A DNA stretch of 64,000 nucleotides from positions 62,001 through 126,000 of the forward strand of contig JABXKD010000001.1 of NCBI GenBank assembly GCA_013375475.1, in the 5' to 3' direction. Source of the DNA: Promethearchaeota archaeon. Lineage in GTDB: Archaea; Asgardarchaeota; Lokiarchaeia; Sigyniarchaeales; SOKP01. A model generated the notes under the pieces. The model searched no databases. It saw only the letters and a list, made by a program, of their open reading frames with translations, and was not told the origin of the DNA. The position numbers and the translations under genes are program-made. Shown here piece after piece: positions 9,624 to 62,991 of the stretch. Each line of letters opens with the position of its first letter. Within the stretch, counting starts at the first letter, position 1.

Positions 9624-10502
9624 ATGGCTAATTCTTCCAAAGATTATACTATAGATGAAATGATTACAGTTTTAATGGCAAGAGAAGTTCGAAATAATGA
9701 CGTCATGATCGTTGGAGTTGCGACTCCTTGCGTATGGGCGGCTTTTACATTAGCAAAAATGACGCACGCACCAGACTCAATATTTCATTATATTATGGGG
9801 AATACTTTTGTGGACGAACCTCGCCAAGTTTCTTTACTCTATCTAGAAATGAATACCGCTAGGGCTTATCGCTTTCAGAATTCGGGAGAATGTACGTTAG
9901 AATCTCTTCCTTCGGATAAGCTTACTACAATTGAATTTTTTAGACCTGCGCAAGTAGATCAATACGGCAACACGAATAATATTTGTATTGGAGATTATAA
10001 TAAACCGAAAATAAGACTACCGGGCTGTGCCGGGATAGCTGATTTCAGTATGTTCTACGCCCGTGGATCTTTCCTATATACACCTCGCCACGATTCACGA
10101 ACATTTGTTCCAACCGAAAAATTAGATTTTATTTCCGGAGTTGGTTTTCCTGAAGGTAATCCCTCTATATGTGGTGGAGCAGGACCACAAAGCGTAATTA
10201 CAAATTTAGCGTATATGGATTTTGATGAAAAAACTAAATGTATGAGGTTAGGTTCAATACATCCTGGTGTAGATATCGATCATGTTAAAAAATCAACAGG
10301 GTTTGAATTAATCATTCCTCAAAAAGTCCAAGAAACCAATCCTCCATCTGTAGAAGAAATTAAGGTTTTGAGAGAAAAAGTAGATCCCTTAAAAATAAGA
10401 AAGTTGGAAATACTATCTGGTAAAGAACGTGAAGAGCTACTAGATGATATAATTCAAAAGGAATTGGCAAAACAAAATAAATTTCCAAGCTTACTAATTT
10501 AA
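9624..10502 (+). CDS. CoA-transferase, subunit B
   Basis: Family-like VGVATPCVWAAFTLAKMTHAP, FFRPAQVDQYGNTNN, FISGVGF. Confidence 0.8.
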   Translation: MANSSKDYTIDEMITVLMAREVRNNDVMIVGVATPCVWAAFTLAKMTHAPDSIFHYIMGNTFVDEPRQVSLLYLEMNTARAYRFQNSGECTLESLPSDKLTTIEFFRPAQVDQYGNTNNICIGDYNKPKIRLPGCAGIADFSMFYARGSFLYTPRHDSRTFVPTEKLDFISGVGFPEGNPSICGGAGPQSVITNLAYMDFDEKTKCMRLGSIHPGVDIDHVKKSTGFELIIPQKVQETNPPSVEEIKVLREKVDPLKIRKLEILSGKEREELLDDIIQKELAKQNKFPSLLI

Positions 10503-12988: not shown

Positions 12989-14116
12989 TTAATTATTACG
13001 TGGGGGAAGCATTCTTACCATTCTCGGACCTTCAATAAGAGAGATTGCGTTTTCAGGGCAATGATAAGCACACACACCACATCCAACACAGAACTCTTCC
13101 TCTCTTTCCGCTTTAATGTCATCGTTCAATTTAATAGCTTTATTATAACACAAGTCTACACAGGTACCACATCCTGTACATAAATCTTGATCGATACTAG
13201 CTACATAATTTGTTTCATTGACTACGGGAAAAATTAAGCAATCTCGAGCAGTCATACAACAACAGTTACAACAATTACAGATTGCCACTTCTTCGGCTGA
13301 TGAATTACCGTATTTATGATAGGCTTTATGAACTAATCCCGCATCTTCACATTTTTTTAGGATTTCCAATGCTTCTTCTTTAGACACTAATTTAGAGAAA
13401 CCGTGATTAGAAGTATGCCTTGCCGATTTCCCTAAGGTCATACAGCTTGGTGTAATTTCGATCATCTTACATGGATTGCCCAATAATTCCTGATGGTTAC
13501 GACAATAACAATTTCCTACAGCGATATCATCATACTTTTCAATAAGTTCTCTAATTTGTTGAGTCGGTAATATTTTTTCTGTGGGCACTTCCAGTTCTTC
13601 ATTTACGATAACATTAATCTCTTCGCCTGTTTCCAAATTTTTCAATATTGGAACTGTACGATCCATTGGTGGCATACGTTTCAATGCAGCACTAAATCCA
13701 TCATATTGAGCTTGAACCTCATCTCTATGTTCTTCATTCAATTTACCGAATAACCGTGCTAACTTAAGAATATCCTCCGTTTTTTCAAGGTTTCGCATAA
13801 AAATATATTCAAATTGCCTATGAAGGGGGAATAATTGATATACCATTATACCACTACGATTAGGTTGATTGATTATAACACCCATTTTTGCTAATTCATC
13901 TGCTTTCTTTAAGATCTCATCTTCAGATAATCCACTGCTCTCCTTCAATTGTTCCATTGTTTGAGAAGTCTTTTCTCCAAAGGCCAAAAGTAAGTCGAGA
14001 TTTTCATCTTTGACCGTTATTTTTAGAATTTCATGAACAGTTTCTGAAAAAGGGAATTGAAATCCTCCTGCCTTAAATAAAGTTTTAAGAGCTTTTTGAT
14101 AGTTTGCTTCACTCAT
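12989..14116 (-). CDS. Helical/wHTH-like domain plus 10-Cys module plus 2x[4Fe-4S] ferredoxin
   Basis: CYCRNHQELLGNPC..SCMTLG, CNCCNCCC, CTGCGTCVDLC, CVGCGVCAYHCP. Confidence 0.85.
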   Translation of the reverse strand: MSEANYQKALKTLFKAGGFQFPFSETVHEILKITVKDENLDLLLAFGEKTSQTMEQLKESSGLSEDEILKKADELAKMGVIINQPNRSGIMVYQLFPLHRQFEYIFMRNLEKTEDILKLARLFGKLNEEHRDEVQAQYDGFSAALKRMPPMDRTVPILKNLETGEEINVIVNEELEVPTEKILPTQQIRELIEKYDDIAVGNCYCRNHQELLGNPCKMIEITPSCMTLGKSARHTSNHGFSKLVSKEEALEILKKCEDAGLVHKAYHKYGNSSAEEVAICNCCNCCCMTARDCLIFPVVNETNYVASIDQDLCTGCGTCVDLCYNKAIKLNDDIKAEREEEFCVGCGVCAYHCPENAISLIEGPRMVRMLPPRNN

Positions 14117-29491: not shown

Positions 29492-31180
29492 ATGGAGAAA
29501 AACAAAATGGTAGAAGCGAAAAAAATAGCAAATGTATTCGAAGATATCGATAGCGAATTACCCAAAGAACAATTGGGTAAATTGTTTTTAGAAGCAATAA
29601 TGGAAAAAACCGTTGATGTCTCGGATCCGATATATAAAATTAGCTTTCAGAGAACATATAAGGTAAATCTGGATATTTTGGGACATATAGGCTATCAAAT
29701 TTATGAACCGACTAATTATAGTTATAAATACGGTGAATTTATTGATGATCCGGATTTTACGATAACTTATAAAGATGTTGAATTTATTAGAGAAAGACTC
29801 CGGGGTGATAGAACCCGCACCGCCATAGGACTAAACTCAAAGGAAGTCCTCCAGGTATGTAGAAAAGAAGATCTATTCACGACATACACAAAAGCAAAGG
29901 TAGGTAATGCCCAATTATTTATAGCTAGAATCCCCTTCTTTGAGGAAATCGTCGAAAATTTAGGGGCGAGTCAACAGACCTTCCCACTCCGTGATGAGCC
30001 CGACACACCCATCACTCCCGTCAAAGAGGGTGAACTTGCGTCCCTTATGAAAGATATGTTAATTGAGACAGGGAATATGCCTGAAGAACTTTACCAAAAG
30101 AATTTCCAAGGGCAACCAATGAAAATCAATTGGGAAATTGATGACAACATCGCATATCAACATTTTGCTGAGAACGGGTATAAGTACGAATTTGGGAAAC
30201 ACATTGAGGATGCAGACGTAACTCTAAAGTTTCATAATCCATTGCATACCAAACGATTTCTCTCCAAGATTACTGGAAATTACGCCGCTAGAATTGTCGA
30301 TAAAAATCTTAATTTCTATTATAAAAATCCGGTTTTAAGCGTGAACTTTAAAGATAAGGAAGCCTCCGCATTATCTCTCTTGAGACTACCCTTTTACCGT
30401 GAATTAAATAGACCAATAGTTGAGCCAACGGTAGAGGACGAAGAAAAAGATACACGAGAGAATTATGGACATTATATCCCTGTTAATCTTCCCCTCGGTG
30501 ATTTTGAAAATGTGCCAGTCCCATACAAAGTATTTGAACACTTCATCAATAAAGCGAGTAATATAGTTCTCCGTACATGTGGTTGCCGTGAACGGTGGCA
30601 GTGCAAAAATCACTCCATCGATTTGGGCTGCATCTTTATGGGAGACGACACCAAAAACATGGTGCTTCCACCTGAGCAAGGTTACCATGCAACAAAAGAA
30701 CAAGCTCTTGAACATTTGACAAAAGCGATGGCCGAAGGATTGGTACCACTAATTGGGAGAAATGTTGCAGAAGCAGAAGGAGGCCATGGAGTAGAAGACA
30801 CGGGTAAATTTTTATCTGGATGCTTCTGCTGCGAATGTTGCTGTATTGGCGCTAAAGCCGCCAAATATGGTATTCGTACGGGGGCAAGCATGGCTGGGGA
30901 AAATACCGGTCTTCTGAAAGGTTGGACGATTACGGTTGATGAAGAGAAATGTACCGGCTGTGGGATATGTGTCGATGAGTGTCCCTTCAAATTGAGAATT
31001 CTTAAAGATGGAAAATCATCCGTAAATCCGAGAATCTGTGTAGGATGTGGAAGATGCTTGAAAGTATGCCCCGAAGAAGCTATTTCATTTGAAGTAGAGG
31101 ATCCAGAAGTAATCGATAAATTTATCGCGAAGATAGAGTCTATAGTCGATGTTACAGATAACTCTCTGAAAGCGGAATAA
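29492..31180 (+). CDS. Tandem SCP2-like domains plus 10-Cys module plus 2x[4Fe-4S] ferredoxin
   Basis: Two SCP2-like segments (IGYQIYEP..YKYGEFIDDPDFTITY; IAYQHFAE..YEFGKHIEDADVTLKF), CGCRERWQCKNHSIDLGCIFMG, CFCCECCC, two CxxCxxCxxxCP. Confidence 0.88.
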   Translation: MEKNKMVEAKKIANVFEDIDSELPKEQLGKLFLEAIMEKTVDVSDPIYKISFQRTYKVNLDILGHIGYQIYEPTNYSYKYGEFIDDPDFTITYKDVEFIRERLRGDRTRTAIGLNSKEVLQVCRKEDLFTTYTKAKVGNAQLFIARIPFFEEIVENLGASQQTFPLRDEPDTPITPVKEGELASLMKDMLIETGNMPEELYQKNFQGQPMKINWEIDDNIAYQHFAENGYKYEFGKHIEDADVTLKFHNPLHTKRFLSKITGNYAARIVDKNLNFYYKNPVLSVNFKDKEASALSLLRLPFYRELNRPIVEPTVEDEEKDTRENYGHYIPVNLPLGDFENVPVPYKVFEHFINKASNIVLRTCGCRERWQCKNHSIDLGCIFMGDDTKNMVLPPEQGYHATKEQALEHLTKAMAEGLVPLIGRNVAEAEGGHGVEDTGKFLSGCFCCECCCIGAKAAKYGIRTGASMAGENTGLLKGWTITVDEEKCTGCGICVDECPFKLRILKDGKSSVNPRICVGCGRCLKVCPEEAISFEVEDPEVIDKFIAKIESIVDVTDNSLKAE

Positions 31181-31276: not shown

Positions 31277-32482
31277 ATGTCTGAAACTGATAAAGAGTTA
31301 GAAACACTCTTCAAAAAAATGCTCAAAGACCAAGAAGAAGTCACTCAGAATGACCAAATCTATAAAGAGGATATCAAAAACTCCCCACTGAAAGTACAAT
31401 GGGATACGCAAGGAATCCTAGCTTACCAAATCTTTGAGAAAGATAATTACTCATATAAATTTGGCGAAGAATTGGAAAATCCTGACCTAACTATAACATT
31501 TAATGACGCTGAAGCTGCTAAAACGTTTTTGAAGGGAGAAATTATAGACTATGCGCCTATACCAAAAAAAGAATACGAAGGAATCTTTAAGTTGAATTAC
31601 AATGCAGGATGGATTCCTTTAGAACCTAGTGAAAAAAGGAATCGAAAACCTACTGAACGAATTGTGAAACCTTTTTTAACCGTTACATTTGATAAAGAAA
31701 AGAAATATCACCCATTTATCCTCGTAAAAATGCCGATGTTTCGTAATATTCTTGCAAGGGGAGAAGGAGAGGGTAATTATGGTGTTTATGTCCCAATCAA
31801 TCAATCATTAGGAACATATGAAAACCAAATTATTCCGTTTAAAATTTTTAAACACTTCATTGATAAAGCAAGTCATATCGTAATGGAGGATCTTTGCGGT
31901 TGTAGATTAATAAAAGAATGTCAACATCATGATGTTTCACTTGGCTGTATGCATCTTGGAAGCGATCTGAAAAATATTGATTTGGAGGATTTAGAACGAG
32001 ACGTTCCACAAAATATCCCTGGACGAGTCGCTACCAGAGAAGAAGCACTAGAACGAGTTCAATTAGCGTATGATAACGGTTTAATTCCTTTACTTGGACG
32101 TTCTCGAAGGGAAGCAATGGTAAGTGGGGTATCAGATACCGGAAAGATTATGTCTATGTGCTTCTGCTGCTCATGTTGCTGCGTGAACGGAAATTTAATG
32201 AGATATGGCTCACCCAGTCTCTCAAGTCTTCGTCGAATAGATGGATTAAAAGTAGAAGTGGATGAAGAGAAGTGCGTTGGATGTGGAGATTGTCTCGAAG
32301 TGTGCGTGTTTAAAGGAATGGAAATGCACGACGACAAGGCTGTAGTTAACCAAGACTACTGTTTAGGTTGCGGAAGATGTGAGGATATATGCCCTAATGG
32401 AGCCATTTCGATTACTATTGATGATACAACGTATGTGGATGAGTTAATTGAAGTTCTCGAATCTTACGCAGATGTTAGCTAA
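31277..32482 (+). CDS. SCP2-like plus 10-Cys module plus 2x[4Fe-4S] ferredoxin
   Basis: LAYQIFEKDNYSYKFGEELENPDLTITF; CGCRLIKECQHHDVSLGCMHLG; CFCCSCCC; CVGCGDCLEVC, CLGCGRCEDICP. Confidence 0.9.
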   Translation: MSETDKELETLFKKMLKDQEEVTQNDQIYKEDIKNSPLKVQWDTQGILAYQIFEKDNYSYKFGEELENPDLTITFNDAEAAKTFLKGEIIDYAPIPKKEYEGIFKLNYNAGWIPLEPSEKRNRKPTERIVKPFLTVTFDKEKKYHPFILVKMPMFRNILARGEGEGNYGVYVPINQSLGTYENQIIPFKIFKHFIDKASHIVMEDLCGCRLIKECQHHDVSLGCMHLGSDLKNIDLEDLERDVPQNIPGRVATREEALERVQLAYDNGLIPLLGRSRREAMVSGVSDTGKIMSMCFCCSCCCVNGNLMRYGSPSLSSLRRIDGLKVEVDEEKCVGCGDCLEVCVFKGMEMHDDKAVVNQDYCLGCGRCEDICPNGAISITIDDTTYVDELIEVLESYADVS

Positions 32483-37659: not shown

Positions 37660-38898
37660 ATGGAAAAGAGGAGTATAGTAGCCATGGAAGAGAAAGAAGC
37701 CAAAGTAAGAGAGCTCTTCGTGAAAATGTTGGAGGATGCTGCAAAATATGCAGTGGAGTATGAGTTCTACGAAGAGGACATGAAGGATTACCACGAAATA
37801 GTGCAATGGAAGTTCGGATCTATCAGAGGATATCAAATATTCGACGAGACAGAGTATTCTTTCAAGATCGACGAAGAGGCTGAAGATCCGACCCTGACAC
37901 TAGGGACCCCTGATCTTGATCTTGCCTACCAGTTCCTCAACGACGAATTCGATCATTGGCCGGCCTTTACGGGGAGTAAATTCTTGGTTGGCATGAAAGG
38001 CCCCAATGGGAAATATAAGGAAAAGAGAATAGGAAAACTAACTGGTTTTGCCCCCGGCAGTGCCCCTAAGACCAGTTCTTCAAAAGAAAATGCCCCTCCC
38101 AAGCAAAGACGCGTGTCTGCTCGTCTGGTGAGAATACCCGTGTTTCGGCCGATCATGGAGCGGACCTCAGATCCCGAGAACTCGAACACCGTTCGCATTC
38201 CAATCAATGAGTCCTTGGGTACCTACGAAAATGAGTCGATACCTCTCGCAGTACTCGAATACTTCATAAACAAAGCAAGCCACGTCTATGTATTCCAGCA
38301 GTGCCCGTGTCGAGCGCTCGCCGATTGCAAGAATTACGACCAATCCCTCGGATGCTTGGCTCTGGGTAATGGTGTTCTGAGGATGAAGACCTTTGGGAGG
38401 ATTGGTACCAAAGAAGAGGCATTGGAACGATCACGAAAAGCTGTTGCTGCTGGTCTCCTACCTTCTCTGGGGAGAGTCAAAGGCGATACAATCGTCTATC
38501 ATGCTCTGCCTGAACAGGGAGATCTGATGCATATCTGTTTCTGTTGCCCCTGTTGCTGTGTTGAGGCCTTTGGTAAGGACTCGCCGATGTATTTGAAGGG
38601 GAAGTATCCAAAGATGGAGGGTACAAACATCACGATAAATGAAGATCTCTGTGATGGATGCGAGAAAGAGGAAATTCCTCTCTGTCTCGAGGTGTGTATA
38701 TATGGTGGAATGGAAGTCATCGATGGCGTAGCCGTGAATGACCGGGAGGGCAAGAATCGCTGTAAAGCCTGCGGAAGATGCGAGAGAGTATGCCCCAAGG
38801 GAGCGATAACTATTACCATCGAGGAGGATTCTGTGAAAAGAATGATCGCTCGCATAGAAACCAGCGTTGATGTCTCAGAAAATTTTATAAAAAGGTAA
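37660..38898 (+). CDS. SCP2-like plus 10-Cys module plus 2x[4Fe-4S] ferredoxin (GC-richer paralog)
   Basis: IRGYQIFDETEYSFKIDEEAEDPTLTL; CPCRALADCKNYDQSLGCLALG; CFCCPCCC; CDGCEKEEIPLCLEVC, CKACGRCERVCP. Confidence 0.88.
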   Translation: MEKRSIVAMEEKEAKVRELFVKMLEDAAKYAVEYEFYEEDMKDYHEIVQWKFGSIRGYQIFDETEYSFKIDEEAEDPTLTLGTPDLDLAYQFLNDEFDHWPAFTGSKFLVGMKGPNGKYKEKRIGKLTGFAPGSAPKTSSSKENAPPKQRRVSARLVRIPVFRPIMERTSDPENSNTVRIPINESLGTYENESIPLAVLEYFINKASHVYVFQQCPCRALADCKNYDQSLGCLALGNGVLRMKTFGRIGTKEEALERSRKAVAAGLLPSLGRVKGDTIVYHALPEQGDLMHICFCCPCCCVEAFGKDSPMYLKGKYPKMEGTNITINEDLCDGCEKEEIPLCLEVCIYGGMEVIDGVAVNDREGKNRCKACGRCERVCPKGAITITIEEDSVKRMIARIETSVDVSENFIKR

Positions 38899-41686: not shown

Positions 41687-43504
41687 TTATTTTAAGAAAT
41701 CTTTAAGTTTTAATTCCAATAATTTATCTTCCGTGGGAATCCCTATAGAATCCCAACCCATTACATTATAATAATCGTCCAATAAAGCATCCAATTCTAC
41801 TATTTGTTCTCTGCTTTCTCCGCTAGGGAGAGTTTCTTCTAGAAAGCGTTTTGGAAGAGTATCGTGACTACGATCCAGCCCAAGATTTACGTTATACATC
41901 CGCTCCAGGTTAATAATTCTTTCGGCAGCCTTGAGGAACGACGCAATGTCGTGTTCGATTCCCGTAACGGTCGTGTAAGCCTTAAGCAAGTTGTCGAGAG
42001 GTATTCCCGCACGCATCGTAGAACATAAAGCTATAGAGTCTACAATAGCCATACTGAACTGATGGTCCCTCTCTAAATTTCCTTTTCCTTCTACCTGAAA
42101 CCTAGTACCACTAGATAATTCCGCGCCAAAAGTAGTGGCAAGCATATGATGAGCCCCTTTTGGTGAAGTTGCATATGTTAAAGCCATTCCTTTTGCCCCT
42201 CTCGGATCGTATACCGGAAACGATTGACCTTTCGAATGAATAGCAAGTCCCTCAATCTTTAGTATTTTTTCGGCTTCAGCAGGTCCCTTAGCTAAAATGT
42301 CACCAATACCTTCTCTTTTTCCAATCTTTTCCAGAATTTGTAGTAATGCATTATCGTTTCCAAACAACATCTTGATACCATCAGTATCGTCTAAAGTAAG
42401 CCTTCCTGTCTCGAATCCTTCCATTACCATTGAAACACACGCTCCGGCGTTTATTGTGTCAAAACCGTATGTATCGCAAATCTTTGATGCCTTTAAAAGG
42501 GTCTCCCAACTACTAATCTCACAATTTGAGCCCAACATTCCTACGGTCTCAAATTCTGGACCTTCCATAACATATTCTTCATTGTCTTTCGTTTTTACAT
42601 AGGTCCGTTTACCACATCCTATCGGGCATCCAAAACAAGAACTATCCCCGATAATTATCTCTTCTCGCATCTGTTTGCCCTCAAGTTTATAACCCTCTTC
42701 AAAATAACCTTCCGTGAAGTTTCGTGTCACCCAGAACCCCGCGTTATTTATTCGTTCCACCAATTCCATTGTACCATATTGTCTTCTAACTTTGCCACCA
42801 CGCGACTCCCTTAAATCTGATATAAGGTCCTTACTTAATTCGATTATTTCTTCGGGCTTAGCTACATTTACGTCAGTGGAACCTGTAATGGCGATCCCCT
42901 TAAGGTTTTTAGATCCCATCACAGCACCGGCACCACCCCTTCCGAATTCTCGGTACTGACCAGCAGTTATGCATGCGTAGTTCACCAACTTCTCTCCCGC
43001 GGGACCGATCAAGGCAATCTGGACCCTATCACCCTCGCCAATCTCTTCTCGAAGTAATTCATCGCTTTCAGGAATTAAGTTGCCCCATATTTTCTCGGCT
43101 GATCTGATTTTAACATCGTTGTTGTTAATTGAGATGTAAACTGGTTTCTCTGCCTTTCCCTCGATTATTAACCCGTCATATCCCGCAAACTTTAATTCCG
43201 GCCCCCAATGACCACCACATAATGAATACGAATATGTATTTGTCAAGGGCGATTTAAACGTTACGCAAATCTTATTATTACCAGGGATTAAAGTGCCCGC
43301 TAAAGGACCATTCATGAAAATCAGCTTACTATCCGGGCTTAAAGGTCCTACATTTGGTGGAACTTCCTTCGTTAAATAATACGCCCCCAATCCACGACCA
43401 CCTATAAATAATTCCCAGAGTTTAGAGTCAATAGCTTCTATTTTCGATTCTTCAGTTGTAAGGTTGACTCGTAATAGCTTTCCCGTCATTCCACTATATG
43501 ACAT
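41687..43504 (-). CDS. aor: Aldehyde:ferredoxin oxidoreductase family (tungsten AOR)
   Basis: GKLLRVNLTTEE..FIGGRGLGAYYL; GRGGAGAVMGSKNLKGIAI; CFGCPIGCGKRTYV. Confidence 0.92.
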   Translation of the reverse strand: MSYSGMTGKLLRVNLTTEESKIEAIDSKLWELFIGGRGLGAYYLTKEVPPNVGPLSPDSKLIFMNGPLAGTLIPGNNKICVTFKSPLTNTYSYSLCGGHWGPELKFAGYDGLIIEGKAEKPVYISINNNDVKIRSAEKIWGNLIPESDELLREEIGEGDRVQIALIGPAGEKLVNYACITAGQYREFGRGGAGAVMGSKNLKGIAITGSTDVNVAKPEEIIELSKDLISDLRESRGGKVRRQYGTMELVERINNAGFWVTRNFTEGYFEEGYKLEGKQMREEIIIGDSSCFGCPIGCGKRTYVKTKDNEEYVMEGPEFETVGMLGSNCEISSWETLLKASKICDTYGFDTINAGACVSMVMEGFETGRLTLDDTDGIKMLFGNDNALLQILEKIGKREGIGDILAKGPAEAEKILKIEGLAIHSKGQSFPVYDPRGAKGMALTYATSPKGAHHMLATTFGAELSSGTRFQVEGKGNLERDHQFSMAIVDSIALCSTMRAGIPLDNLLKAYTTVTGIEHDIASFLKAAERIINLERMYNVNLGLDRSHDTLPKRFLEETLPSGESREQIVELDALLDDYYNVMGWDSIGIPTEDKLLELKLKDFLK

Positions 43505-43508
43505 CGTT

Positions 43509-43928
43509 TTATTTCCCCTCCTGAGCTGTTGTTATTGCGCCCTCGGGACAAATGTCCACGCAAGCTGGATTACCTCCACAAAAATCGCAAATTAAAACGT
43601 AATCCTCAGTAGGATGCATAACTGGATGATCGTAAGGACATTCCTCAATACACTTTCTACACGCTACGCAATCTTCCTCGCTCACAAGAATCGTATTAGT
43701 GTCAGAGTCTCTAGAAAGTGCATCGAACTCACATGCTTCAATGCACTTCGCTTCTACGCACGAATGACAATAAATAGCGGAATCTAACTGCTTCTCATCA
43801 TCTCGAACAATGCGAATACGCGTTTTTGCTGGGTTTGTAACTTGAAAATGGGTAGCTGAACACATCAGTTCGCAAAGGCGGCATCCTATACACTTTTTAA
43901 GTTCAAATACAAGTACTTTATGATTCAT
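43509..43928 (-). CDS. [4Fe-4S] polyferredoxin, AOR partner
   Basis: CIGCRLCELMCSATH; CHSCVEAKCIEACEF; CVACRKCIEECPYDHP; CDFCGGNPACVDICPEGAI; 5 bp from AOR on the same strand. Confidence 0.9.
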   Translation of the reverse strand: MNHKVLVFELKKCIGCRLCELMCSATHFQVTNPAKTRIRIVRDDEKQLDSAIYCHSCVEAKCIEACEFDALSRDSDTNTILVSEEDCVACRKCIEECPYDHPVMHPTEDYVLICDFCGGNPACVDICPEGAITTAQEGK

Positions 43929-43981
43929 AATTTATCCTAAATTTTATTGTAAATGATAATTAAAACATAAGCCTAAGAAAA

Positions 43982-44407
43982 TTAATATTTCTTCTTAAAT
44001 TCGTCAATAACGTCTTCATAAAACTCTTGAAATAGTCTTACTTGTGTGAAATTTCCACTAATACCAAGCTTTCCAAGAGGAGCTACTATATTAGCGTCAG
44101 TCTCTCCAAAAAACAATCCCAAACCGATATCCTTGGAAGATGTGATTGTAAAGGATGGCGATTCAAGCTTTCCTTTGTCATATTCAACATTTCCTTTACT
44201 CACTTTTATCCAATATTCTTTTTCTAAATCAGAAAAAACTACTTGGCATGTATAATCACTTTCCTCAACGTCGGCTTTTAAATAATCAACTTCTTTGGAC
44301 ATCTGTTTAATTAATTCAAAAGATTTTAATACATCATCAGCCTCCGAAGCAGAAGCACCAGATTTTATCTTATTTTTCATTTCTTCAACTAACGATTTAT
44401 CAACCAT
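43982..44407 (-). CDS. Stand-alone SCP2-like domain protein
   Basis: 141 aa; KEYWIKVSKGNVEYDKGKLESPSFTITSSKDIGLGLFFGETD..LGKLGISGNF. Confidence 0.78.
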   Translation of the reverse strand: MVDKSLVEEMKNKIKSGASASEADDVLKSFELIKQMSKEVDYLKADVEESDYTCQVVFSDLEKEYWIKVSKGNVEYDKGKLESPSFTITSSKDIGLGLFFGETDANIVAPLGKLGISGNFTQVRLFQEFYEDVIDEFKKKY

Positions 44408-44685: not shown

Positions 44686-45852
44686 TTGACTACTCAAAAT
44701 ACCGAGCTTGGAACTTATTTTATAAAGATGTTAGACGACATTGACGATTTACTAAAAGTTGATGAAGTCTTGAAAAAGGACTTGAAAGATCTTAAAATAT
44801 CCATTCAATGGTTTGTCAACGGAATCAAGGGATATCAAATATTTGACAACGGAAAATATACTCATAGGTTTGGAGAAGAAATAGAAAACGCTGATTTAAC
44901 AATTAAATTCGCAGATGAAGAGATAGCCTTGAGGTTTTTGAAAGGAAATTTAGAAAGGCACACGTATGTGTATTATAGGCGCAAATTTAAGTTATACTCA
45001 ATCGAAAAAGAGGAAAAGATCGAAAAAGATTCGAAGTCCGTAACAATACGCCATAGAAGACTTTTTTTAACAGCTTATTTTACCAAGAGTATCTTTTATC
45101 ATCCGTCATTTTTAACCAGATTTCCTCTTTTTAGAGAAATTGCTACAAGGCATTCAGAACCAGAAAATTCGTTCGGTTCTTACATTCCCATAAATGCATC
45201 CTTAGGTAAATTTGAAAATCAATTAATGCCTGAAAAAATGCTTGAACACTTTATTAAAAAAGCCAAACATTTTTACGTCCAAAACGCATGTGGGTGTAGA
45301 GTTTTTCACGATTGCCAAGATCACGATAAAAAATTTGCGTGTATGTACATAGGCGACGATGTCCCTACAATAAAACTACCTCCATCAATGGGGCACTCTA
45401 TTACTCAAGAAGAAGCGTTAACTTACGCAAAAGATGCTATAAAAAACGGATTAGTTCCTACTTTTGGTAGAGCTCCTGGTGAAACAAATGCGATAGGCGC
45501 GGTAGATACGGGACACATTATGTCTATATGTTATTGCTGCCCATGTTGCTGTCTTAACGGAAAGATCGCTAAATATGCTACTCGAGAAATTCAGATGTTC
45601 ACCAGAATGGAGGGTTTGACAGTTGAAGTTGACCCAAGTATATGTAATGGCTGTGGAACTTGCTTAGATGTCTGTGTTTTCGTCGGCAGAGATGTAATCA
45701 ACGGTAAGGCAGTCATTGACCAAGAACGGTGCCTAGGTTGTGGCCGTTGCGAACAAGTATGTCCTAACGACGCAATAACGATTAAGATTGACGATCCAAA
45801 AAGAGTTGTCGAACATATACAGAGACTAGAAGAAAGTGTAGATGTCTCTTAA
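44686..45852 (+). CDS. SCP2-like plus 10-Cys module plus 2x[4Fe-4S] ferredoxin
   Basis: IKGYQIFDNGKYTHRFGEEIENADLTIKF; CGCRVFHDCQDHDKKFACMYIG; CYCCPCCC; CNGCGTCLDVC, CLGCGRCEQVCP; TTG start. Confidence 0.9.
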   Translation: MTTQNTELGTYFIKMLDDIDDLLKVDEVLKKDLKDLKISIQWFVNGIKGYQIFDNGKYTHRFGEEIENADLTIKFADEEIALRFLKGNLERHTYVYYRRKFKLYSIEKEEKIEKDSKSVTIRHRRLFLTAYFTKSIFYHPSFLTRFPLFREIATRHSEPENSFGSYIPINASLGKFENQLMPEKMLEHFIKKAKHFYVQNACGCRVFHDCQDHDKKFACMYIGDDVPTIKLPPSMGHSITQEEALTYAKDAIKNGLVPTFGRAPGETNAIGAVDTGHIMSICYCCPCCCLNGKIAKYATREIQMFTRMEGLTVEVDPSICNGCGTCLDVCVFVGRDVINGKAVIDQERCLGCGRCEQVCPNDAITIKIDDPKRVVEHIQRLEESVDVS

Positions 45853-45907: not shown

Positions 45908-47110
45908 ATGAAGAAAAAAAATAGTGAAATTGAGAAATTAATTAAAAAAATATTAGTAGATTTAGAGGATTTTACTAAGACTGATGAGTTTTATAAAGAA
46001 GATATGAAAGATATGTCGTTTCGAATCCAGTGGAAAATCTGTGGATATGATTTCTATCAGATATTCGAGAAGGACCGGTATGAACATAAATTTGGGGGCA
46101 TTCTGCCCGACCCAGATTTTTCACTAACCATCAGAAACGAGGAATCTGCGATTAAATTCTTAAAAGGAGAATTGTTAGGCGGGAGATATGCTTCCCGTAA
46201 AGACTATAATGGCAGGTTTAAATTCGTTGAAAGATTAGGATGGGCCACGATCAAAACAGAGGATGGAGAAAAAAAGAGACCTGTAGAAAAATATTTCATG
46301 ACTGCAAAATTTGATCCAGAAAAAAAATACCATCCGCTTACTCTAACAAAAATACCAACCTTTCGACTCTATAGACAATCGAAAAGTTCTCCTAGGCCTG
46401 AACGCGTAGGTAATGCAGCCTACATCCCTATTAATAAATTTGTGGGTGAGCACGAAAATACAATAATCCCTCTAAAAGTGTTTGAACATTTTTTAAGCAA
46501 AGCTTCTGTCATTGTTATGGAGGATATTTGCGGATGTCGACATTATAGAGAGTGCGAAAATCACGATGTTTCTATTGGATGTATGCATATTGGACAAGAC
46601 ATGCTGAAACGCGATCTTCAAGATTTAGAGCCGGGTATGCCAGAAGACGTACCAGGAAGATTAGCAACAAAAGAGGAAGCTATAGAACGTGTACGACTTG
46701 CCTACGAAAATGGATTAATGCCATTACTAGGGAAGGGTGGAATGGAGGGGCAAGGCGGTCCGAATACAGGCAAACTAATGTCAATGTGTTTTTGCTGTCC
46801 CTGCTGTTGTGTAAATGGTATTGTTACGAGGAATGCAACTTCAGCTCTTAAATTATTTAATCGGATGGAAGGTTTGCATGTTGAAGTCGACAGAGATGTC
46901 TGCGTGGGATGCGGAGAATGCGTGGAAGTCTGTGCGTTTATGGGAATGGATATGATAGATGGAAAAGCAGAAGTTAACCAAAGACGCTGCCTAGGGTGTG
47001 GTAAATGCGAAATTGCATGTCCAAATGACGCCATTTCAATATATTTCGACGATCCAAGTCGCGTTGACGATTTTATCAACACATTAGACTCTGTTGTTGA
47101 TGTTTCGTAA
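45908..47110 (+). CDS. SCP2-like plus 10-Cys module plus 2x[4Fe-4S] ferredoxin
   Basis: CGCRHYRECENHDVSIGCMHIG; CFCCPCCC; CVGCGECVEVC, CLGCGKCEIACP. Confidence 0.9.
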   Translation: MKKKNSEIEKLIKKILVDLEDFTKTDEFYKEDMKDMSFRIQWKICGYDFYQIFEKDRYEHKFGGILPDPDFSLTIRNEESAIKFLKGELLGGRYASRKDYNGRFKFVERLGWATIKTEDGEKKRPVEKYFMTAKFDPEKKYHPLTLTKIPTFRLYRQSKSSPRPERVGNAAYIPINKFVGEHENTIIPLKVFEHFLSKASVIVMEDICGCRHYRECENHDVSIGCMHIGQDMLKRDLQDLEPGMPEDVPGRLATKEEAIERVRLAYENGLMPLLGKGGMEGQGGPNTGKLMSMCFCCPCCCVNGIVTRNATSALKLFNRMEGLHVEVDRDVCVGCGECVEVCAFMGMDMIDGKAEVNQRRCLGCGKCEIACPNDAISIYFDDPSRVDDFINTLDSVVDVS

Positions 47111-47217: not shown

Positions 47218-48402
47218 ATGGAGCTAATAGAATTAGAATTAAAGGCTGCCTTTCAAGAAATGGTAGAAAATGCGGAAAAACTCTTAAGAAATAACGAGAA
47301 TACCCGCCGCGATTTGAAAGATTTCAAACTAAGCGTTCAATGGAATGTAGGCTCATTAAATGGGTATCAAATCTTTAACAAGGGGGAATACCTCTATAAA
47401 ATAGACGAAGAACTGGATAAACCCAATCTCTTAATTACATTTGAATCTACTGAGATTGCAAAAAAACTATTTGAGGGTAAATTACGCGATTTTAGGCAGA
47501 TGAAGGATGGCTTGATCCATCGGTTTCGATTTGTAGAAAACGAAGATAATATGAATATTATAGAGCCTAAAGTCCCATTTGAAGATTTTGAGTATGATAT
47601 GCAACTAAAATTTTCAAAGAAGCGATACGATTTACCTCTTATGTTCTTAGCTAAAATCCCCGTATTCAATACATTATACCTTAATCACTGGGATGCTGAG
47701 CATGTAAGTGGTGGACCGATACCAATAAATCAATCGCTTGGTACTTATGAGAACCAAATAATACCATTAGTGGTTTTAGAACATTTTCTCAAAAAAGCTA
47801 AATTTATATATTTAGTAGATTGTGGTTGTCGTATTGCCCGAAAATGTGAAAACCACGATTATAGGTTAGGTTGTATGTATTTAGGTCAACCCGCTGCTAA
47901 TATTGACCTTACCGCTCCCTGGAGAATAGAGAAGCATGGTCATTACGCTACTTTTGAAGATGCCATGGATCAGGCTCGTAGAGCTATTGAAGATGGATTA
48001 GTTCCCACGTTAGGACGCCTTAGAGGAGATGTTATAGCGTTAGGAATCTTACCGGATGACGGTCATTTGATGAGCATTTGTTTCTGTTGTTCTTGCTGTT
48101 GTGCGTTCAATAGTTTAAAATATGCTACTTCTGATTTAAGGAACCTCTTTACGAGAATGGAAGGTGTGAAGGTTGAAATAGACATAGATATGTGTAGTGG
48201 TTGCGGAACTTGTGTTAATAATTGTATGTATGGGGCGGTAAAAATAATTGATGGAAAAGCACAAATTAATCAAGATTTCTGTTTAGGATGCGGACGGTGC
48301 GAAACGAACTGTCCCGATGGTGCAGTATCGATTTCGATAGAGAATGTTAATAAGGTTGAGGAGTTAATTGCACGCCTTGAGTCTTATATTGATGTAAGTT
48401 AA
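47218..48402 (+). CDS. SCP2-like plus 10-Cys module plus 2x[4Fe-4S] ferredoxin
   Basis: LNGYQIFNKGEYLYKIDEELDKPNLLITF; CGCRIARKCENHDYRLGCMYLG; CFCCSCCC; CSGCGTCVNNC, CLGCGRCETNCP. Confidence 0.9.
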   Translation: MELIELELKAAFQEMVENAEKLLRNNENTRRDLKDFKLSVQWNVGSLNGYQIFNKGEYLYKIDEELDKPNLLITFESTEIAKKLFEGKLRDFRQMKDGLIHRFRFVENEDNMNIIEPKVPFEDFEYDMQLKFSKKRYDLPLMFLAKIPVFNTLYLNHWDAEHVSGGPIPINQSLGTYENQIIPLVVLEHFLKKAKFIYLVDCGCRIARKCENHDYRLGCMYLGQPAANIDLTAPWRIEKHGHYATFEDAMDQARRAIEDGLVPTLGRLRGDVIALGILPDDGHLMSICFCCSCCCAFNSLKYATSDLRNLFTRMEGVKVEIDIDMCSGCGTCVNNCMYGAVKIIDGKAQINQDFCLGCGRCETNCPDGAVSISIENVNKVEELIARLESYIDVS

Positions 48403-48428: not shown

Positions 48429-49595
48429 TTGGATTTAAAGAAGTTATTTTACAAGATGCTTGAAGGAGTGGAGGATCTCGCAAACACTAATACAGAGATT
48501 AAAGAAGATTTGAAATCTTTGAAGTTGATAGTCCAATGGAAGATCGACTCGTTAAATGGGTATCAAATTTTCGATAATGGCAAATATGTATACAAACAAG
48601 GAGGAGTTCATCCTAATCCTGATTTAGTATGCATTTTCATAAATAAAGAGACTGTAAAAAAGCTATTTGAAGGAAAATTACGCGATTTTAGAATGAAGGT
48701 AGAAGGAAAAAAATACCGAATTCGATTCATTGAGAAAGAAGAGGACATGAATAAAGTGATACTAGACGTTCCATTCGAGGATTTTGATTACGATTTAGAA
48801 GTGGAATTTTCTGCTGATAGGGATCAAAGACTTATTTTTTTATCTCGAATCCCAGTCTTTAACACGCTATTTAAAAATCATTACGATCCAGATCACTCTC
48901 GGGGGTCAGCTATACCTATAAATGTAAAGCTGGGAACGTACGAAAACCAGATGGTACCAATGGTAGTTTTGGAGCATTTTCTTAAAAAAGCTAATTTAAG
49001 ATATTTAGTAGATTGTGGATGCCGAATAGGTAAAAACTGTAAAGATTACGATTACAGAACAGGTTGTATGTATTTAGGAAAGGGAGTAGAAAAGCTTGCT
49101 CTTGATCTTCCTTGGAGAATTGAGAAACATGCACATCTCGCTACTTATGAGGAAGCTATAGCACAAGCTCGGAAAGCTGTTGAAAGCGGTCTAGTTCCTG
49201 TAATGGGGAGATACAGAGCTGAAGCAGCAGTAATGTATGCCTTACCTGATGAAGGAAATATGTTAACCATTTGCTATTGTTGTCCTTGTTGTTGTGTACA
49301 AGGAGTTTATAAATATGGTTCTGCTACCGTTAGAAAAATCTTTCAAAGAATGGAAGGTCTGGAAGTAATTTTCGATAAAGAGCTCTGTGTTGGATGTGGG
49401 GAATGCCTTGATGTTTGTATTTATGATGGGATTCAAATGGTTGATAATAAAGCACAAAAAATTAGAGAAAACTGCTTAGGATGTGGAAGATGCGAACGAG
49501 TCTGTCAGAATGGCGCTATAAAGATTACTATTGATGATCCTAAGCGACTTGATGAGTTTATTAAAACTATTGAAGAATATGTTAATGTTCTATAA
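48429..49595 (+). CDS. SCP2-like plus 10-Cys module plus 2x[4Fe-4S] ferredoxin (tandem duplicate of 47218-48402)
   Basis: LNGYQIFDNGKYVYKQGGVHPNPDLVCIF; CGCRIGKNCKDYDYRTGCMYLG; CYCCPCCC; CVGCGECLDVC, CLGCGRCERVC. Confidence 0.9.
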   Translation: MDLKKLFYKMLEGVEDLANTNTEIKEDLKSLKLIVQWKIDSLNGYQIFDNGKYVYKQGGVHPNPDLVCIFINKETVKKLFEGKLRDFRMKVEGKKYRIRFIEKEEDMNKVILDVPFEDFDYDLEVEFSADRDQRLIFLSRIPVFNTLFKNHYDPDHSRGSAIPINVKLGTYENQMVPMVVLEHFLKKANLRYLVDCGCRIGKNCKDYDYRTGCMYLGKGVEKLALDLPWRIEKHAHLATYEEAIAQARKAVESGLVPVMGRYRAEAAVMYALPDEGNMLTICYCCPCCCVQGVYKYGSATVRKIFQRMEGLEVIFDKELCVGCGECLDVCIYDGIQMVDNKAQKIRENCLGCGRCERVCQNGAIKITIDDPKRLDEFIKTIEEYVNVL

Positions 49596-51568: not shown

Positions 51569-52747
51569 ATGGTTGGAAAAGAAAAACTTGAACCTAAGTT
51601 TAAGAAAATGCTTGAAGATATTGAAAATTCTCTAAGTGAAGATACTGTTCTCCAAGAAGATTTGAAGGATTTATTACTTGATATTCAATGGGATATTTGT
51701 GGTATCAAAGGATATCAGAAATTTAATAACGGAGAGTATTCTTTTAAATTCGGGGGAGAACTTGATAATCCAGACATAACAATGGAAATTGATGATGATG
51801 ACACTGCTTTAAAACTACTTAATGGTGAAATAGATAGTTTCGAATACCGTTTTTATAAGCGGAAAGCTAAAATCTATTATATAGAAAAGTGGGAGAAAGA
51901 AAAGGTGGGAGAAGAGATTCTAAAAAAAAAGTATTTTAAATTGATTTTAACTATGCGATATACCAAAGGTATATTTATCCACCCCTATACTATAACTCGA
52001 CTCCCGATTTTTCGAGACATAATTGATAAATGGTATGATCCTAAGACCGCTGATGCTTCTTATATCCCAATTAACGATTCATTAGGAACATATGAGGATA
52101 AAGTATTACCTTTGAAAGTCCTCGAGCATTTTATTAATAAAGCGGAGCATTTGCTAATAACTCACGGTTGTGGTTGTAGAATTTATAACCAATGCCAAGA
52201 TCATGATCATTCAATTGGTTGCTTGTACATAGGTGCAGATACCGTAGATGTAAAAGAAGTTTTTCCTAAAAAAATCCCGGGGAGTTCTCATTTCGGGACT
52301 AAGGAAGAGGCCTTAGAAAGAGTAAAAGAAGCTTATGACAATGGATTAATTACTGTTATTGGCAGACTAAAATGGGATGCTGAAGCCATGGGAGTTTCAG
52401 ACAGAGGACATTTTATGACCGTATGTTTCTGTTGCCCATGTTGTTGTATAGCTGGTAAAAGGATGTATGGAACGATAGAACTTCAAAACTTGATGCAAAG
52501 AATCGAGGGCGTTAGTGTTTCGGTTGATGAGGACTTATGTATTGGATGCGAGGATTGTATGGAAGTTTGCGTGTTTGAAGGGATGGAAATGATTGATGGT
52601 AAAGCTAAAGTTAATCAAGAAAAATGCCTTGGTTGTGGCCGATGCGAACGAGTATGTCAGAACAAGGCTATATCAATAACAATCGATGATCCTAAGAGAC
52701 TCGACGAGTTTATACGAAGGATAGAAGCTAAAGTTGATGTCTCATAA
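51569..52747 (+). CDS. SCP2-like plus 10-Cys module plus 2x[4Fe-4S] ferredoxin
   Basis: IKGYQKFNNGEYSFKFGGELDNPDITMEI; CGCRIYNQCQDHDHSIGCLYIG; CFCCPCCC; CIGCEDCMEVC, CLGCGRCERVC. Confidence 0.9.
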   Translation: MVGKEKLEPKFKKMLEDIENSLSEDTVLQEDLKDLLLDIQWDICGIKGYQKFNNGEYSFKFGGELDNPDITMEIDDDDTALKLLNGEIDSFEYRFYKRKAKIYYIEKWEKEKVGEEILKKKYFKLILTMRYTKGIFIHPYTITRLPIFRDIIDKWYDPKTADASYIPINDSLGTYEDKVLPLKVLEHFINKAEHLLITHGCGCRIYNQCQDHDHSIGCLYIGADTVDVKEVFPKKIPGSSHFGTKEEALERVKEAYDNGLITVIGRLKWDAEAMGVSDRGHFMTVCFCCPCCCIAGKRMYGTIELQNLMQRIEGVSVSVDEDLCIGCEDCMEVCVFEGMEMIDGKAKVNQEKCLGCGRCERVCQNKAISITIDDPKRLDEFIRRIEAKVDVS

Positions 52748-52849: not shown

Positions 52850-54058
52850 ATGGCAGAAAAAAAAGAAGAAATCGAATTCTTATTCAAGAAAATGATGAAA
52901 GACTTCGAAAAAATCAGTCAGAACGATGTAATTTATCAGCAAGATATACGAGAACTTGGAGATTTAAAAATTCAATGGAAAATCTGCGGAATCTTCGGTT
53001 ATCAGATTCTAGAACAAGATAACTACTCCTATGCGTTTGGAGAGCAATTAGATGACCCCAATATCACATTTACTTGGAGAGATCCTGACGAAGCGATCAA
53101 ATTTTTAAAAGGTATGCCATTTGAAGGATTTTCTAAAATTCCTCTTAAAGAATATAAATATATGTTTAGATATCGTTATGTTACAGGTAACACAGTTGCT
53201 GATCGAGGAAATGGAGAGAGAAGAGTAAGAATATTTAAAACAATTATGTCTGCTCGTTTTAAGAAAGAAAAACCTTATCACCCTTATATGATAACAAAAT
53301 TGCCGATGTTTCGAAACGTTAGAAAACTCGCTGATTTAGAACCTGGAAAGAATAGAGAAAACTACGGGTCGTACATCCCTATTAATCAATCTCTTGGAAC
53401 GTTTGAAAACGAGATTCTTCCGATAAAAGTTTTAGAACACTTTTTTGAAAAGGCGAGTAACATTGTTATTCTAAATAAATGTGATTGTAGAATAGTTAAT
53501 GATTGTCAAGATCACGAGAAATCAATTGGATGCATGTTTTTAGGCGATGATTCGTTAAACATGTTGATTACTGAGGAACGGGGGCGCGTCATCACACCTG
53601 AGGAAGCCTTAGAGATTACAAAAAATGCTGTTGAGGGTGGTTTAATTCCATTAATTGGAAAAGCTAGGGGGGATGCTGTGAGGTTTAGTATTGAAGACAC
53701 TGGCCATTTCATGACTATGTGCTTCTGTTGTAGCTGCTGTTGCATTAACGCGAAGGTTACAACACACGGCTCTGTTGCCATTGCAAACCTGGGAGGTAAT
53801 AATAGGATGAGGGGCCTCACGGTTAAAGTTGATGAAGAAATCTGCGTTGGTTGCGAAGAATGCCTTAAAGTCTGTAAATTTAGGAGTATGGAAATGCACG
53901 ACGGAATAGCAAGGGTTAACCAAAATCGATGTTTAGGTTGTGGAAGATGCGAGCAAGTCTGTCCTAACGATGCGATTTCAATCATAATTGACGAGAATAG
54001 TCGTGTTGATGAATTAATTGCTAAACTCGAATCTTACGTTGATGTAGCTCCGCAATGA
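52850..54058 (+). CDS. SCP2-like plus 10-Cys module plus 2x[4Fe-4S] ferredoxin
   Basis: IFGYQILEQDNYSYAFGEQLDDPNITFTW; CDCRIVNDCQDHEKSIGCMFLG; CFCCSCCC; CVGCEECLKVC, CLGCGRCEQVCP. Confidence 0.9.
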   Translation: MAEKKEEIEFLFKKMMKDFEKISQNDVIYQQDIRELGDLKIQWKICGIFGYQILEQDNYSYAFGEQLDDPNITFTWRDPDEAIKFLKGMPFEGFSKIPLKEYKYMFRYRYVTGNTVADRGNGERRVRIFKTIMSARFKKEKPYHPYMITKLPMFRNVRKLADLEPGKNRENYGSYIPINQSLGTFENEILPIKVLEHFFEKASNIVILNKCDCRIVNDCQDHEKSIGCMFLGDDSLNMLITEERGRVITPEEALEITKNAVEGGLIPLIGKARGDAVRFSIEDTGHFMTMCFCCSCCCINAKVTTHGSVAIANLGGNNRMRGLTVKVDEEICVGCEECLKVCKFRSMEMHDGIARVNQNRCLGCGRCEQVCPNDAISIIIDENSRVDELIAKLESYVDVAPQ

Positions 54059-56212: not shown

Positions 56213-57295
56213 ATGTCTCAAGATGATCAAATTTACCGTAATTTGCAGATACATCTAAATAAAATGCCGATCGGATTTCCTCCCAGCGAAACTGGCACCG
56301 ATATAAAGGTTTTAAAAGCGTTTTTCACGTCAGATGAAGCTTTACTAGCAACTTTTTTGGACTATAATCCTATTTCCCTAAGGAAAATTCACCAAAGAGC
56401 TAAAAATCTAGGTATGACAATGGAGCAAGTTGAACAAGAGTTGGACTCCATGGTTCAAAAAAAAATTATCTATGTGGATGTTAATCCCCAGACAGGTAAA
56501 AAATTTTACGGGAACTTACCGTACGCTATAGGATTCTTTGAAACTCACATCAATAGACTTACCAAAGAGATGGCAGAGGCTTTTGACGAATACAATCTAC
56601 CTTTTATCAAGGAGTTTTTGGGTGAGAAGACGGGATTGCCTCAAATGAGGACGGTTCCCATTAATGCCTCAATAACTCATGAGAATAACGTAATGAGTTA
56701 TGATAATGCCCGAGACATTCTCGAGAATGTAGAGGGTCCATACGCGGTTGCACCGTGCGTGTGCGTTCAAGCGAGGGAGATTATAGGAAAAAAATGCGAA
56801 CATGATATGATTGAAAGATGCATGGTGAATAGTCAATCATACATCGATAGTGGGGACGCTAGAGAAATAACTAAAGCAGAAGCAGTAGAAATTTTGCAAA
56901 AAGCTGAGGAAAAAGGACTTGTAATCCAGCCAACAAATAACAAAGCCACTGGAGGTTTTTGTCTTTGCTGTGGTTGTTGCTGTGGTATTTTGTCTAATGG
57001 TAAATTGCTCGAAAAACCAGCTGAACTATTCGCAACAAATTATTATTCAGAAGTAGACGATGAAGAATGTACTGGCTGTCGTACGTGTGAAGAAGTGTGT
57101 CCTATGGATGCTATTACTGTTAACGAAGTGTCTCATATTAATCTAGAGCGGTGTATTGGATGTGGTGTGTGTGTTTCTAAATGTCCTTCCGAAGCAATCC
57201 ACCTTCGAGATAAAGAAGAGAAAATCGTACCTCCAGAAGATGGAGCTGATTTAATCGCGAAAATAACGAAGAAAAAATTAGAGTTAAACCAATAA
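56213..57295 (+). CDS. Helical/wHTH-like domain plus 10-Cys module plus 2x[4Fe-4S] ferredoxin
   Basis: CVCVQAREIIGKKCEHDMIERCMV; CLCCGCCC; CTGCRTCEEVCP, CIGCGVCVSKCP; N-terminus like 12989-14116. Confidence 0.85.
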   Translation: MSQDDQIYRNLQIHLNKMPIGFPPSETGTDIKVLKAFFTSDEALLATFLDYNPISLRKIHQRAKNLGMTMEQVEQELDSMVQKKIIYVDVNPQTGKKFYGNLPYAIGFFETHINRLTKEMAEAFDEYNLPFIKEFLGEKTGLPQMRTVPINASITHENNVMSYDNARDILENVEGPYAVAPCVCVQAREIIGKKCEHDMIERCMVNSQSYIDSGDAREITKAEAVEILQKAEEKGLVIQPTNNKATGGFCLCCGCCCGILSNGKLLEKPAELFATNYYSEVDDEECTGCRTCEEVCPMDAITVNEVSHINLERCIGCGVCVSKCPSEAIHLRDKEEKIVPPEDGADLIAKITKKKLELNQ

Positions 57296-61824: not shown

Positions 61825-62991
61825 TCAGTCTACTGTAACGTGAGACTCTAATTCTTCAATTAACGCATCAACATTGCTTAAATCATTAAATGTTATAGAG
61901 ATTGCATCGCTAGGGCAGGCTTCCACACACCTTCCACAACCAATACATCGATCTGTAATATGTGCTTTACCATCTATCATTTCATTCCCGTTCCAAACAC
62001 AAGCTTCAATACAATCTTCACATCCAACACATGCGTCTTCGTCAACCACTACATTAAGCCCTTCTATTTTATGTATAAATTTAAGCCTACTTGAGGCATG
62101 TTTCAGAATTGGAATATCTACGCAGCAGCAAGGACAACAAAAACATGCCGACATGAATTTTCCTGTATCTTCAATACCCGCCCCTACAGCCTCATCCATG
62201 GCTCTTCCGAGGAGTGGAATCAAACCATCGTCAATAGCTCTTTTCACTAGTTCCAAGGCTTCTTCCTTTGTTGCAACATGCTTTCTATCTTCATCTATCG
62301 GCAAATTTAATGTATCATCGCCCATGTTTAAGCATCCTATTGAATGATCGTGTTTTTGACAGTTATTACTGACCCTGCAGCCACATTTATTCAAAATGAC
62401 GATATTGCTCGCTTTATCAATAAAGTGTTTAAACACAGCATAAGGAATAACTTGATTTTCATATGTCCCAAGAGATTGATTGATTGGGATGAAAAATCCA
62501 ATATCCTCATCAGACATTCGTGTTGCCACCAATTTTCGCAAGATGGGTAATTTAGATAGCATGTAAGGATGATACTCTTTCTCTCTATTAAATCGAGCAT
62601 TTATGAATGGTTTATTGTTTCTTACTCGCTTTTCCCCTGTTTCAGTTTTGATTGTCTTCCAGGAATCCGTGTAATTTATTCTAAACGCTCCTTTATAACC
62701 CGGACCGTAGTTAAACTCAAAGACTTCCCCTTTTAAGAATCGAAGGGCTAACTCTTTATTCCTTATTACCAAAGATATATCGGGATTTTCTAAAATTTCA
62801 CCGAACTTGTAAGGTATTGAATCTTTCTTAAAGGTTTGAGATCCCCGAATTTTAAAAGGTAATTTCCATTGAACGTGTAATTCTTCAATAGTTTCCATAT
62901 CTTTCTCATAAATTTTGTCATTCGGTGCTGCTTTCTCTTGATCCTTCAACATTTCTAGAAATGCTGATTCGAGTTCTTGTTTATCTACCAT
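61825..62991 (-). CDS. SCP2-like plus 10-Cys module plus 2x[4Fe-4S] ferredoxin
   Basis: IRGSQTFKKDSIPYKFGEILENPDISLVI; CGCRVSNNCQKHDHSIGCLNMG; CFCCPCCC; CVGCEDCIEAC, CIGCGRCVEACP. Confidence 0.9.
   Translation of the reverse strand: MVDKQELESAFLEMLKDQEKAAPNDKIYEKDMETIEELHVQWKLPFKIRGSQTFKKDSIPYKFGEILENPDISLVIRNKELALRFLKGEVFEFNYGPGYKGAFRINYTDSWKTIKTETGEKRVRNNKPFINARFNREKEYHPYMLSKLPILRKLVATRMSDEDIGFFIPINQSLGTYENQVIPYAVFKHFIDKASNIVILNKCGCRVSNNCQKHDHSIGCLNMGDDTLNLPIDEDRKHVATKEEALELVKRAIDDGLIPLLGRAMDEAVGAGIEDTGKFMSACFCCPCCCVDIPILKHASSRLKFIHKIEGLNVVVDEDACVGCEDCIEACVWNGNEMIDGKAHITDRCIGCGRCVEACPSDAISITFNDLSNVDALIEELESHVTVD

What the first reader, a model, noticed from the sequence alone, without database searches (positions are those of the whole stretch)
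30571..30845. CxCCxCCC plus CGCR..C..GC motif as a candidate new cofactor site
Seen: in all ten paralogs and both wHTH-like variants, a 4-Cys cluster (CxC..C..C) is followed ~70-90 aa later by a six-cysteine CxCCxCCC block, separate from the eight ferredoxin Cys. This density exceeds one [4Fe-4S] and suggests two clusters, a non-cubane cluster or a metal-thiolate site. Inference only; distant homologs of this block exist in uncharacterised bacterial/archaeal ferredoxins as I remember them.
Basis: partly seen in the sequence, partly recalled or inferred. Interest (0 to 1): 0.75.

Follow-up and report, generated by a model that had tools for sequence, protein, structure and literature searches.

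The report
Unclassified ten-cysteine domain in anaerobes
Twelve genes in this archaeal stretch carry a real but unclassified protein domain with ten conserved cysteines, found across many anaerobic archaea and bacteria, that probably holds an iron-sulfur cofactor beside an ordinary ferredoxin, although what it binds and what reaction it serves are unknown.

Summary
All ten SCP2-type paralogs and both wHTH-type genes carry CxC[R/V]-x4..9-C-x7..8-C, then CxCCxCCC 68-88 residues downstream, then an eight-Cys ferredoxin. The block occurs 12 times in the window against 0 expected. No Pfam or NCBIfam model matches the domain, and it has no credible PDB relative by sequence or predicted fold. It occurs in Asgard and other archaea, Chloroflexota, Desulfobacterota and Actinomycetota, with up to 28 copies in one genome.

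The six-Cys block is not invariant: of 231 profile-fetched members 185 keep all ten Cys (106 of 112 in the window-like group). Most exceptions are Cys-to-Asp at block positions 4 and 6. Co-localisation of the cysteines could not be tested, because no model coordinates were available.

Best reading: a cluster-binding redox module with interchangeable partners (SCP2, short-chain dehydrogenase, NAD(P)H flavoprotein, wHTH). Cluster type and reaction are unknown. A ferredoxin-less form lies beside FTHFS and RACo in some Chloroflexota.

The parts
29492..31180 (+). 562-aa paralog: two SCP2-like repeats, ten-Cys domain, 2x[4Fe-4S] ferredoxin
   Evidence: two SCP2-like matches in this ORF
30578..30631 (+). 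four-Cys motif CGCRERWQCKNHSIDLGC (C363, C365, C371, C380) of the gene above
30821..30844 (+). six-Cys block CFCCECCC (residues 444-451) of the gene above
31277..32482 (+). 401-aa paralog: SCP2 domain, ten-Cys domain (31787-32242), ferredoxin; modelled with AlphaFold2
37660..38898 (+). 412-aa paralog, same architecture; longer loop in the first ferredoxin motif
44686..45852 (+). 388-aa paralog, same architecture
45908..47110 (+). 400-aa paralog, same architecture
47218..48402 (+). 394-aa paralog, same architecture
48429..49595 (+). 388-aa paralog, same architecture
51569..52747 (+). 392-aa paralog, same architecture
52850..54058 (+). 402-aa paralog, same architecture
61825..62991 (-). 388-aa paralog, same architecture
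12989..14116 (-). 375-aa wHTH-type member: different N-terminal part, ten-Cys domain (CYCR..., CNCCNCCC), ferredoxin
56213..57295 (+). 360-aa wHTH-type member: different N-terminal part, ten-Cys domain (CVCV..., CLCCGCCC), ferredoxin
43982..44407 (-). standalone SCP2-like protein next to an aldehyde:ferredoxin oxidoreductase and a polyferredoxin; possible partner, not shown
   Evidence: (PF02036 E=0.0012, just under its cut-off)

Best explanation
The region is an autonomous domain of about 145 residues that binds one or more iron-sulfur clusters through ten cysteines, some exchangeable for Asp. In most members it is fused to a bacterial-type 2x[4Fe-4S] ferredoxin, which would pass low-potential electrons to or from it. 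The N-terminal module differs between subfamilies and would supply the substrate or the partner. In the window paralogs it is an SCP2 domain, so these proteins would be small anaerobic oxidoreductases acting on hydrophobic molecules held by SCP2. Shown: the sequence conservation, the architectures, the SCP2 assignment, the lack of known relatives, and the domain's occurrence without ferredoxin. Inferred: that the metal is iron, that the ten Cys lie together, the direction of electron flow, and any reaction.
For: All ten Cys are invariant in the 12 window genes and kept in 106 of 112 profile-fetched members of the same spacing group. The main exchange is Cys to Asp at block positions 4 and 6. 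A ferredoxin motif follows the domain in nearly all members. Fusions: an NAD(P)H-FAD GltD-like oxidoreductase in L200, a short-chain dehydrogenase/3-beta-HSD-like domain in L149, L152 and L203. SCP2 N-terminus: Foldseek to AF1534 (3bn8, prob 1.00, TMt 0.51), and the paralog profile finds standalone proteins that pass Pfam SCP2. Across the ten paralogs the SCP2 part and linker are more diverged (mean identity 36% and 22%) than the Cys domain and ferredoxin (46% and 50%), as expected if the N-terminus tunes specificity, though a slower-evolving Cys core would look the same. In the AlphaFold2 model (pLDDT 84, pTM 0.77) both Cys motifs directly follow or end beta strands.
Against: No Cys geometry was available. 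Neighbouring genes of the 271-aa core form are not conserved, so no pathway can be named. 40 of 119 members of the wHTH-type spacing group lack at least one of the ten Cys, so not all ten can be essential in every member. The 193-aa forms have no ferredoxin in the same chain. Nothing computed shows that iron is bound.
Confidence: 0.55

Rival explanations
1. The domain is not catalytic but an activator or electron-delivery module for another enzyme, for example a corrinoid protein, with the N-terminal module binding the partner.
For: In a small Chloroflexota genome a ferredoxin-less 193-aa Cys-domain protein lies beside formate-tetrahydrofolate ligase and RACo (L285); a close relative keeps the ligase neighbour (L287), and a divergent genome has ligase plus a [2Fe-2S] RACo-like start (L289). 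A MttB-like methyltransferase lies upstream of the core gene in L061.
Against: The RACo link was seen in one lineage and one further genome only; other neighbourhoods vary. The SCP2 and short-chain dehydrogenase fusions point to small-molecule substrates rather than protein partners.
Confidence: 0.2
2. It is a redox- or metal-sensing module; the wHTH-type members are transcription regulators and the other fusions are sensors too.
For: One bacterial member matches a TrmB-type wHTH weakly (L202, E=0.0011). High paralog numbers per genome would suit sensors.
Against: Pfam gives no significant DNA-binding domain for the two window wHTH-type proteins. Fusions to GltD-like and dehydrogenase enzymes, and a full 2x[4Fe-4S] ferredoxin in most members, fit an oxidoreductase better.
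Confidence: 0.12
3. It is a metal-thiolate site (zinc or another soft metal), structural or for storage, without redox role.
For: Six Cys within eight residues is dense enough for a metal-thiolate cluster, and the metal cannot be told from sequence.
Against: Coupling to ferredoxin in nearly all members, named hits from lineages that are mostly anaerobic (with my own knowledge of the taxa), and an ordered predicted alpha/beta fold.
Confidence: 0.08

Closest known systems
Bacterial-type 2x[4Fe-4S] ferredoxin (Pfam Fer4 clan)
   Same: The C-terminal part of the window proteins is such a ferredoxin
   Different: The ten-Cys domain lies outside every Fer4 match
SCP-2 sterol transfer family (PF02036)
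   Same: The N-terminal domain of the ten paralogs matches the SCP2 fold by Foldseek (3bn8), and standalone relatives pass the Pfam cut-off
   Different: The window domains themselves did not pass the Pfam cut-off where tested, and here SCP2 is fused to a Cys domain and a ferredoxin
CCG-domain proteins (HdrB type, non-cubane clusters)
   Same: Ten Cys for cluster binding in one chain, and coupling to ferredoxin-like partners (HdrB facts from general knowledge)
   Different: No Pfam CCG match, different Cys spacing, no fold match
RACo-type reductive activators of corrinoid proteins (PF14574)
   Same: Some Cys-domain genes are neighbours of RACo
   Different: The Cys-domain protein itself has no RACo or [2Fe-2S] domain

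Membership tests
2x[4Fe-4S] ferredoxin | two CxxCxxCxxxC-type motifs in a Fer4 domain | tested here: met
   Pfam Fer4 families; Foldseek
SCP2 (N-terminal domain of the ten paralogs) | SCP2 fold | tested here: met
   3bn8/3cnu prob 1.00, TMt about 0.5, for the one modelled paralog
SCP2 (N-terminal domain of the ten paralogs) | Pfam PF02036 score above cut-off | tested here: not met
   no PF02036 hit for the four paralogs scanned; standalone relatives do pass
CCG / HdrB non-cubane cluster proteins | CCG domain (PF02754) with its C...CC...CxxC spacing | tested here: not met
   no such Pfam match; spacing differs
Any described family for the ten-Cys domain | match to a Pfam or NCBIfam model or to a PDB chain | tested here: not met
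   the top PDB sequence hits are PPR repeats matched on one helix, no single stretch significant
Iron-sulfur protein (Cys domain) | bound Fe-S cluster in the isolated domain | not testable with these tools
   needs anaerobic purification and spectroscopy
One common site for the ten Cys | Cys side chains co-localised in the model | not testable with these tools
   no model coordinates were available

The most novel reading that the evidence does not exclude
The ten Cys hold a multi-iron cofactor of a type not yet described (for example a double or non-cubane cluster with mixed Cys/Asp ligation) that catalyses reductive chemistry, in the window paralogs on hydrophobic substrates, in many anaerobic archaea and bacteria.
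Probability: 0.2. Interest if true: 0.85.

Novelty: new variant of a known kind. Interest (0 to 1): 0.6.

Why it matters
A conserved cofactor-like domain with up to 28 copies per genome, shared by Asgard archaea and several bacterial phyla, has no Pfam, NCBIfam or PDB counterpart, and no paper that names its motif was found in the held library. If it binds a cluster, a sizeable set of proteins that look like plain ferredoxins in anaerobes are enzymes or activators with an unstudied active site, and the SCP2 fusions in Lokiarchaeia-like genomes point to lipid or other hydrophobic substrates.

Tried and rejected
PDB profile searches of the Cys domain returned PPR repeat proteins only through summed weak matches on one helix; rejected. 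Foldseek of the Cys domain: best PDB E = 1.0, prob 0.03, and no viral match with E <= 0.001; treated as no match. The 80 loci were found with the pattern CxCC[PSE]CCC[ILV], so their block is conserved by construction (this also affects); the tallies leave them out, though the profile used there was itself built from ten-Cys members and near-identical sequences were not thinned. Conserved operon for the core form: looked for and not found. Literature searches for the motif and for SCP2 in Lokiarchaeota gave nothing relevant.

Full report
Observation. The window lies in a 3.9 Mb genome (G000 contig C111); the best named hits to its core-type protein are Lokiarchaeia. Ten ORFs share an SCP2-like N-terminus, a ten-Cys domain and a 2x[4Fe-4S] ferredoxin; two more have a different N-terminus. 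In all 12 the Cys pattern is CxC[R/V]-x4..9-C-x7..8-C, then CxCCxCCC 68-88 residues after the first Cys. The block occurs 12 times in the window, against none in shuffles. The finding's coordinates are right.

What the domain is. Pfam and NCBIfam recognise only the ferredoxin part of the full proteins and nothing credible in the Cys domain, whether 12 or 80 members are scanned. The PDB holds no sequence relative. AlphaFold2 gave good models of the whole 401-aa protein (pLDDT 86, pTM 0.80) and of the Cys domain alone (pLDDT 84, pTM 0.77). Foldseek places the N-terminus with SCP2 (3bn8) and the C-terminus with ferredoxins, but finds no match for the Cys domain. In that model the first motif follows strand E31-34 and the block begins at the end of strand E121-127. 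No coordinates were available, so whether the cysteines meet in space stays open.

Distribution. With a profile of the paralogs, 122 of 196 genomes of the same phylum match. A named scan found the 271-aa core form in Lokiarchaeia, Thorarchaeota, Heimdallarchaeota, Methanomethylicota, Thermoplasmatota, Chloroflexi, deltaproteobacteria and Actinomycetota. In the phylum of one Desulfobacteraceae genome 32 of 59 match, with up to 28 copies in one genome; in three other phyla 7 to 9 of about 50 match. The SCP2-type N-terminus is narrow: 19 matches in this genome and 12 in G113, with standalone SCP2 proteins in some relatives. In a tree several SCP2-type copies of G000 pair with copies of G113 with full support, so part of the expansion predates the split of those two genomes.

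Conservation of the cysteines. The 80 loci were chosen by a motif pattern and cannot test the block. In profile-fetched members, 185 of 231 keep all ten Cys: 106 of 112 in the spacing group of the paralogs and 79 of 119 in the other group. In the earlier 205-sequence set block positions 1 and 3 never vary and position 8 varies once; position 4 is Asp in 7, position 6 is Asp in 21, position 7 varies in 7, and the third Cys of the first motif varies in 9. Two Chloroflexota-phylum proteins have CNCDQDCM in place of the block.

Context and mechanism. Core genes have no conserved neighbours. Fusions are more telling: short-chain dehydrogenase/3-beta-HSD-like and an NAD(P)H-FAD GltD-like module (L200). 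In small genomes of the Chloroflexota phylum a ferredoxin-less form with three plus six Cys sits next to FTHFS, with RACo beyond it in L285; the divergent L289 has FTHFS and a RACo-like start in the same grouping. From this I infer a cluster-binding redox module that takes its substrate or partner through the N-terminal domain; in the window this is SCP2, hence probably hydrophobic ligands. That iron is bound, that the ten Cys form one site, and what is reduced or activated are inference.

Verdict. The domain is real, widespread and unclassified in the libraries searched; the 'new cofactor site' reading is plausible and untested.

Noticed in passing
window 41687-44407 (-): Aldehyde:ferredoxin oxidoreductase, a four-cluster polyferredoxin and a standalone SCP2-like protein lie beside the tandem run of paralogs, in the opposite orientation.
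   Followed up: partly
L285 (193-4651), L287 (451-2949), L289 (2104-5001): A ferredoxin-less Cys-domain protein is next to formate-tetrahydrofolate ligase in small Chloroflexota-phylum genomes, with RACo beyond it in L285 and a [2Fe-2S] RACo-like start in L289.
   Followed up: partly
L200 (1271-3958, -): An 896-aa protein fuses the Cys domain and ferredoxin to a GltD-like NAD(P)H/FAD oxidoreductase.
   Followed up: no
L149 (277-2154), L152 (292-2154), L203 (2947-4752, -): The Cys domain and ferredoxin are fused to a short-chain dehydrogenase/3-beta-HSD-like domain.
   Followed up: no
L206 (G249:C364:12000-21686): At least six Cys-domain genes lie in tandem in one bacterial contig, so tandem amplification is not confined to archaea.
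   Followed up: no
window 4953-5711 and 9624-10502 (+), 10833-12821 (+), 58568-60325 (-): Two CoA-transferase-like genes, an FMN oxidoreductase and an acyl-CoA dehydrogenase-like gene occur around the paralogs and hint at acyl-CoA metabolism.
   Followed up: no
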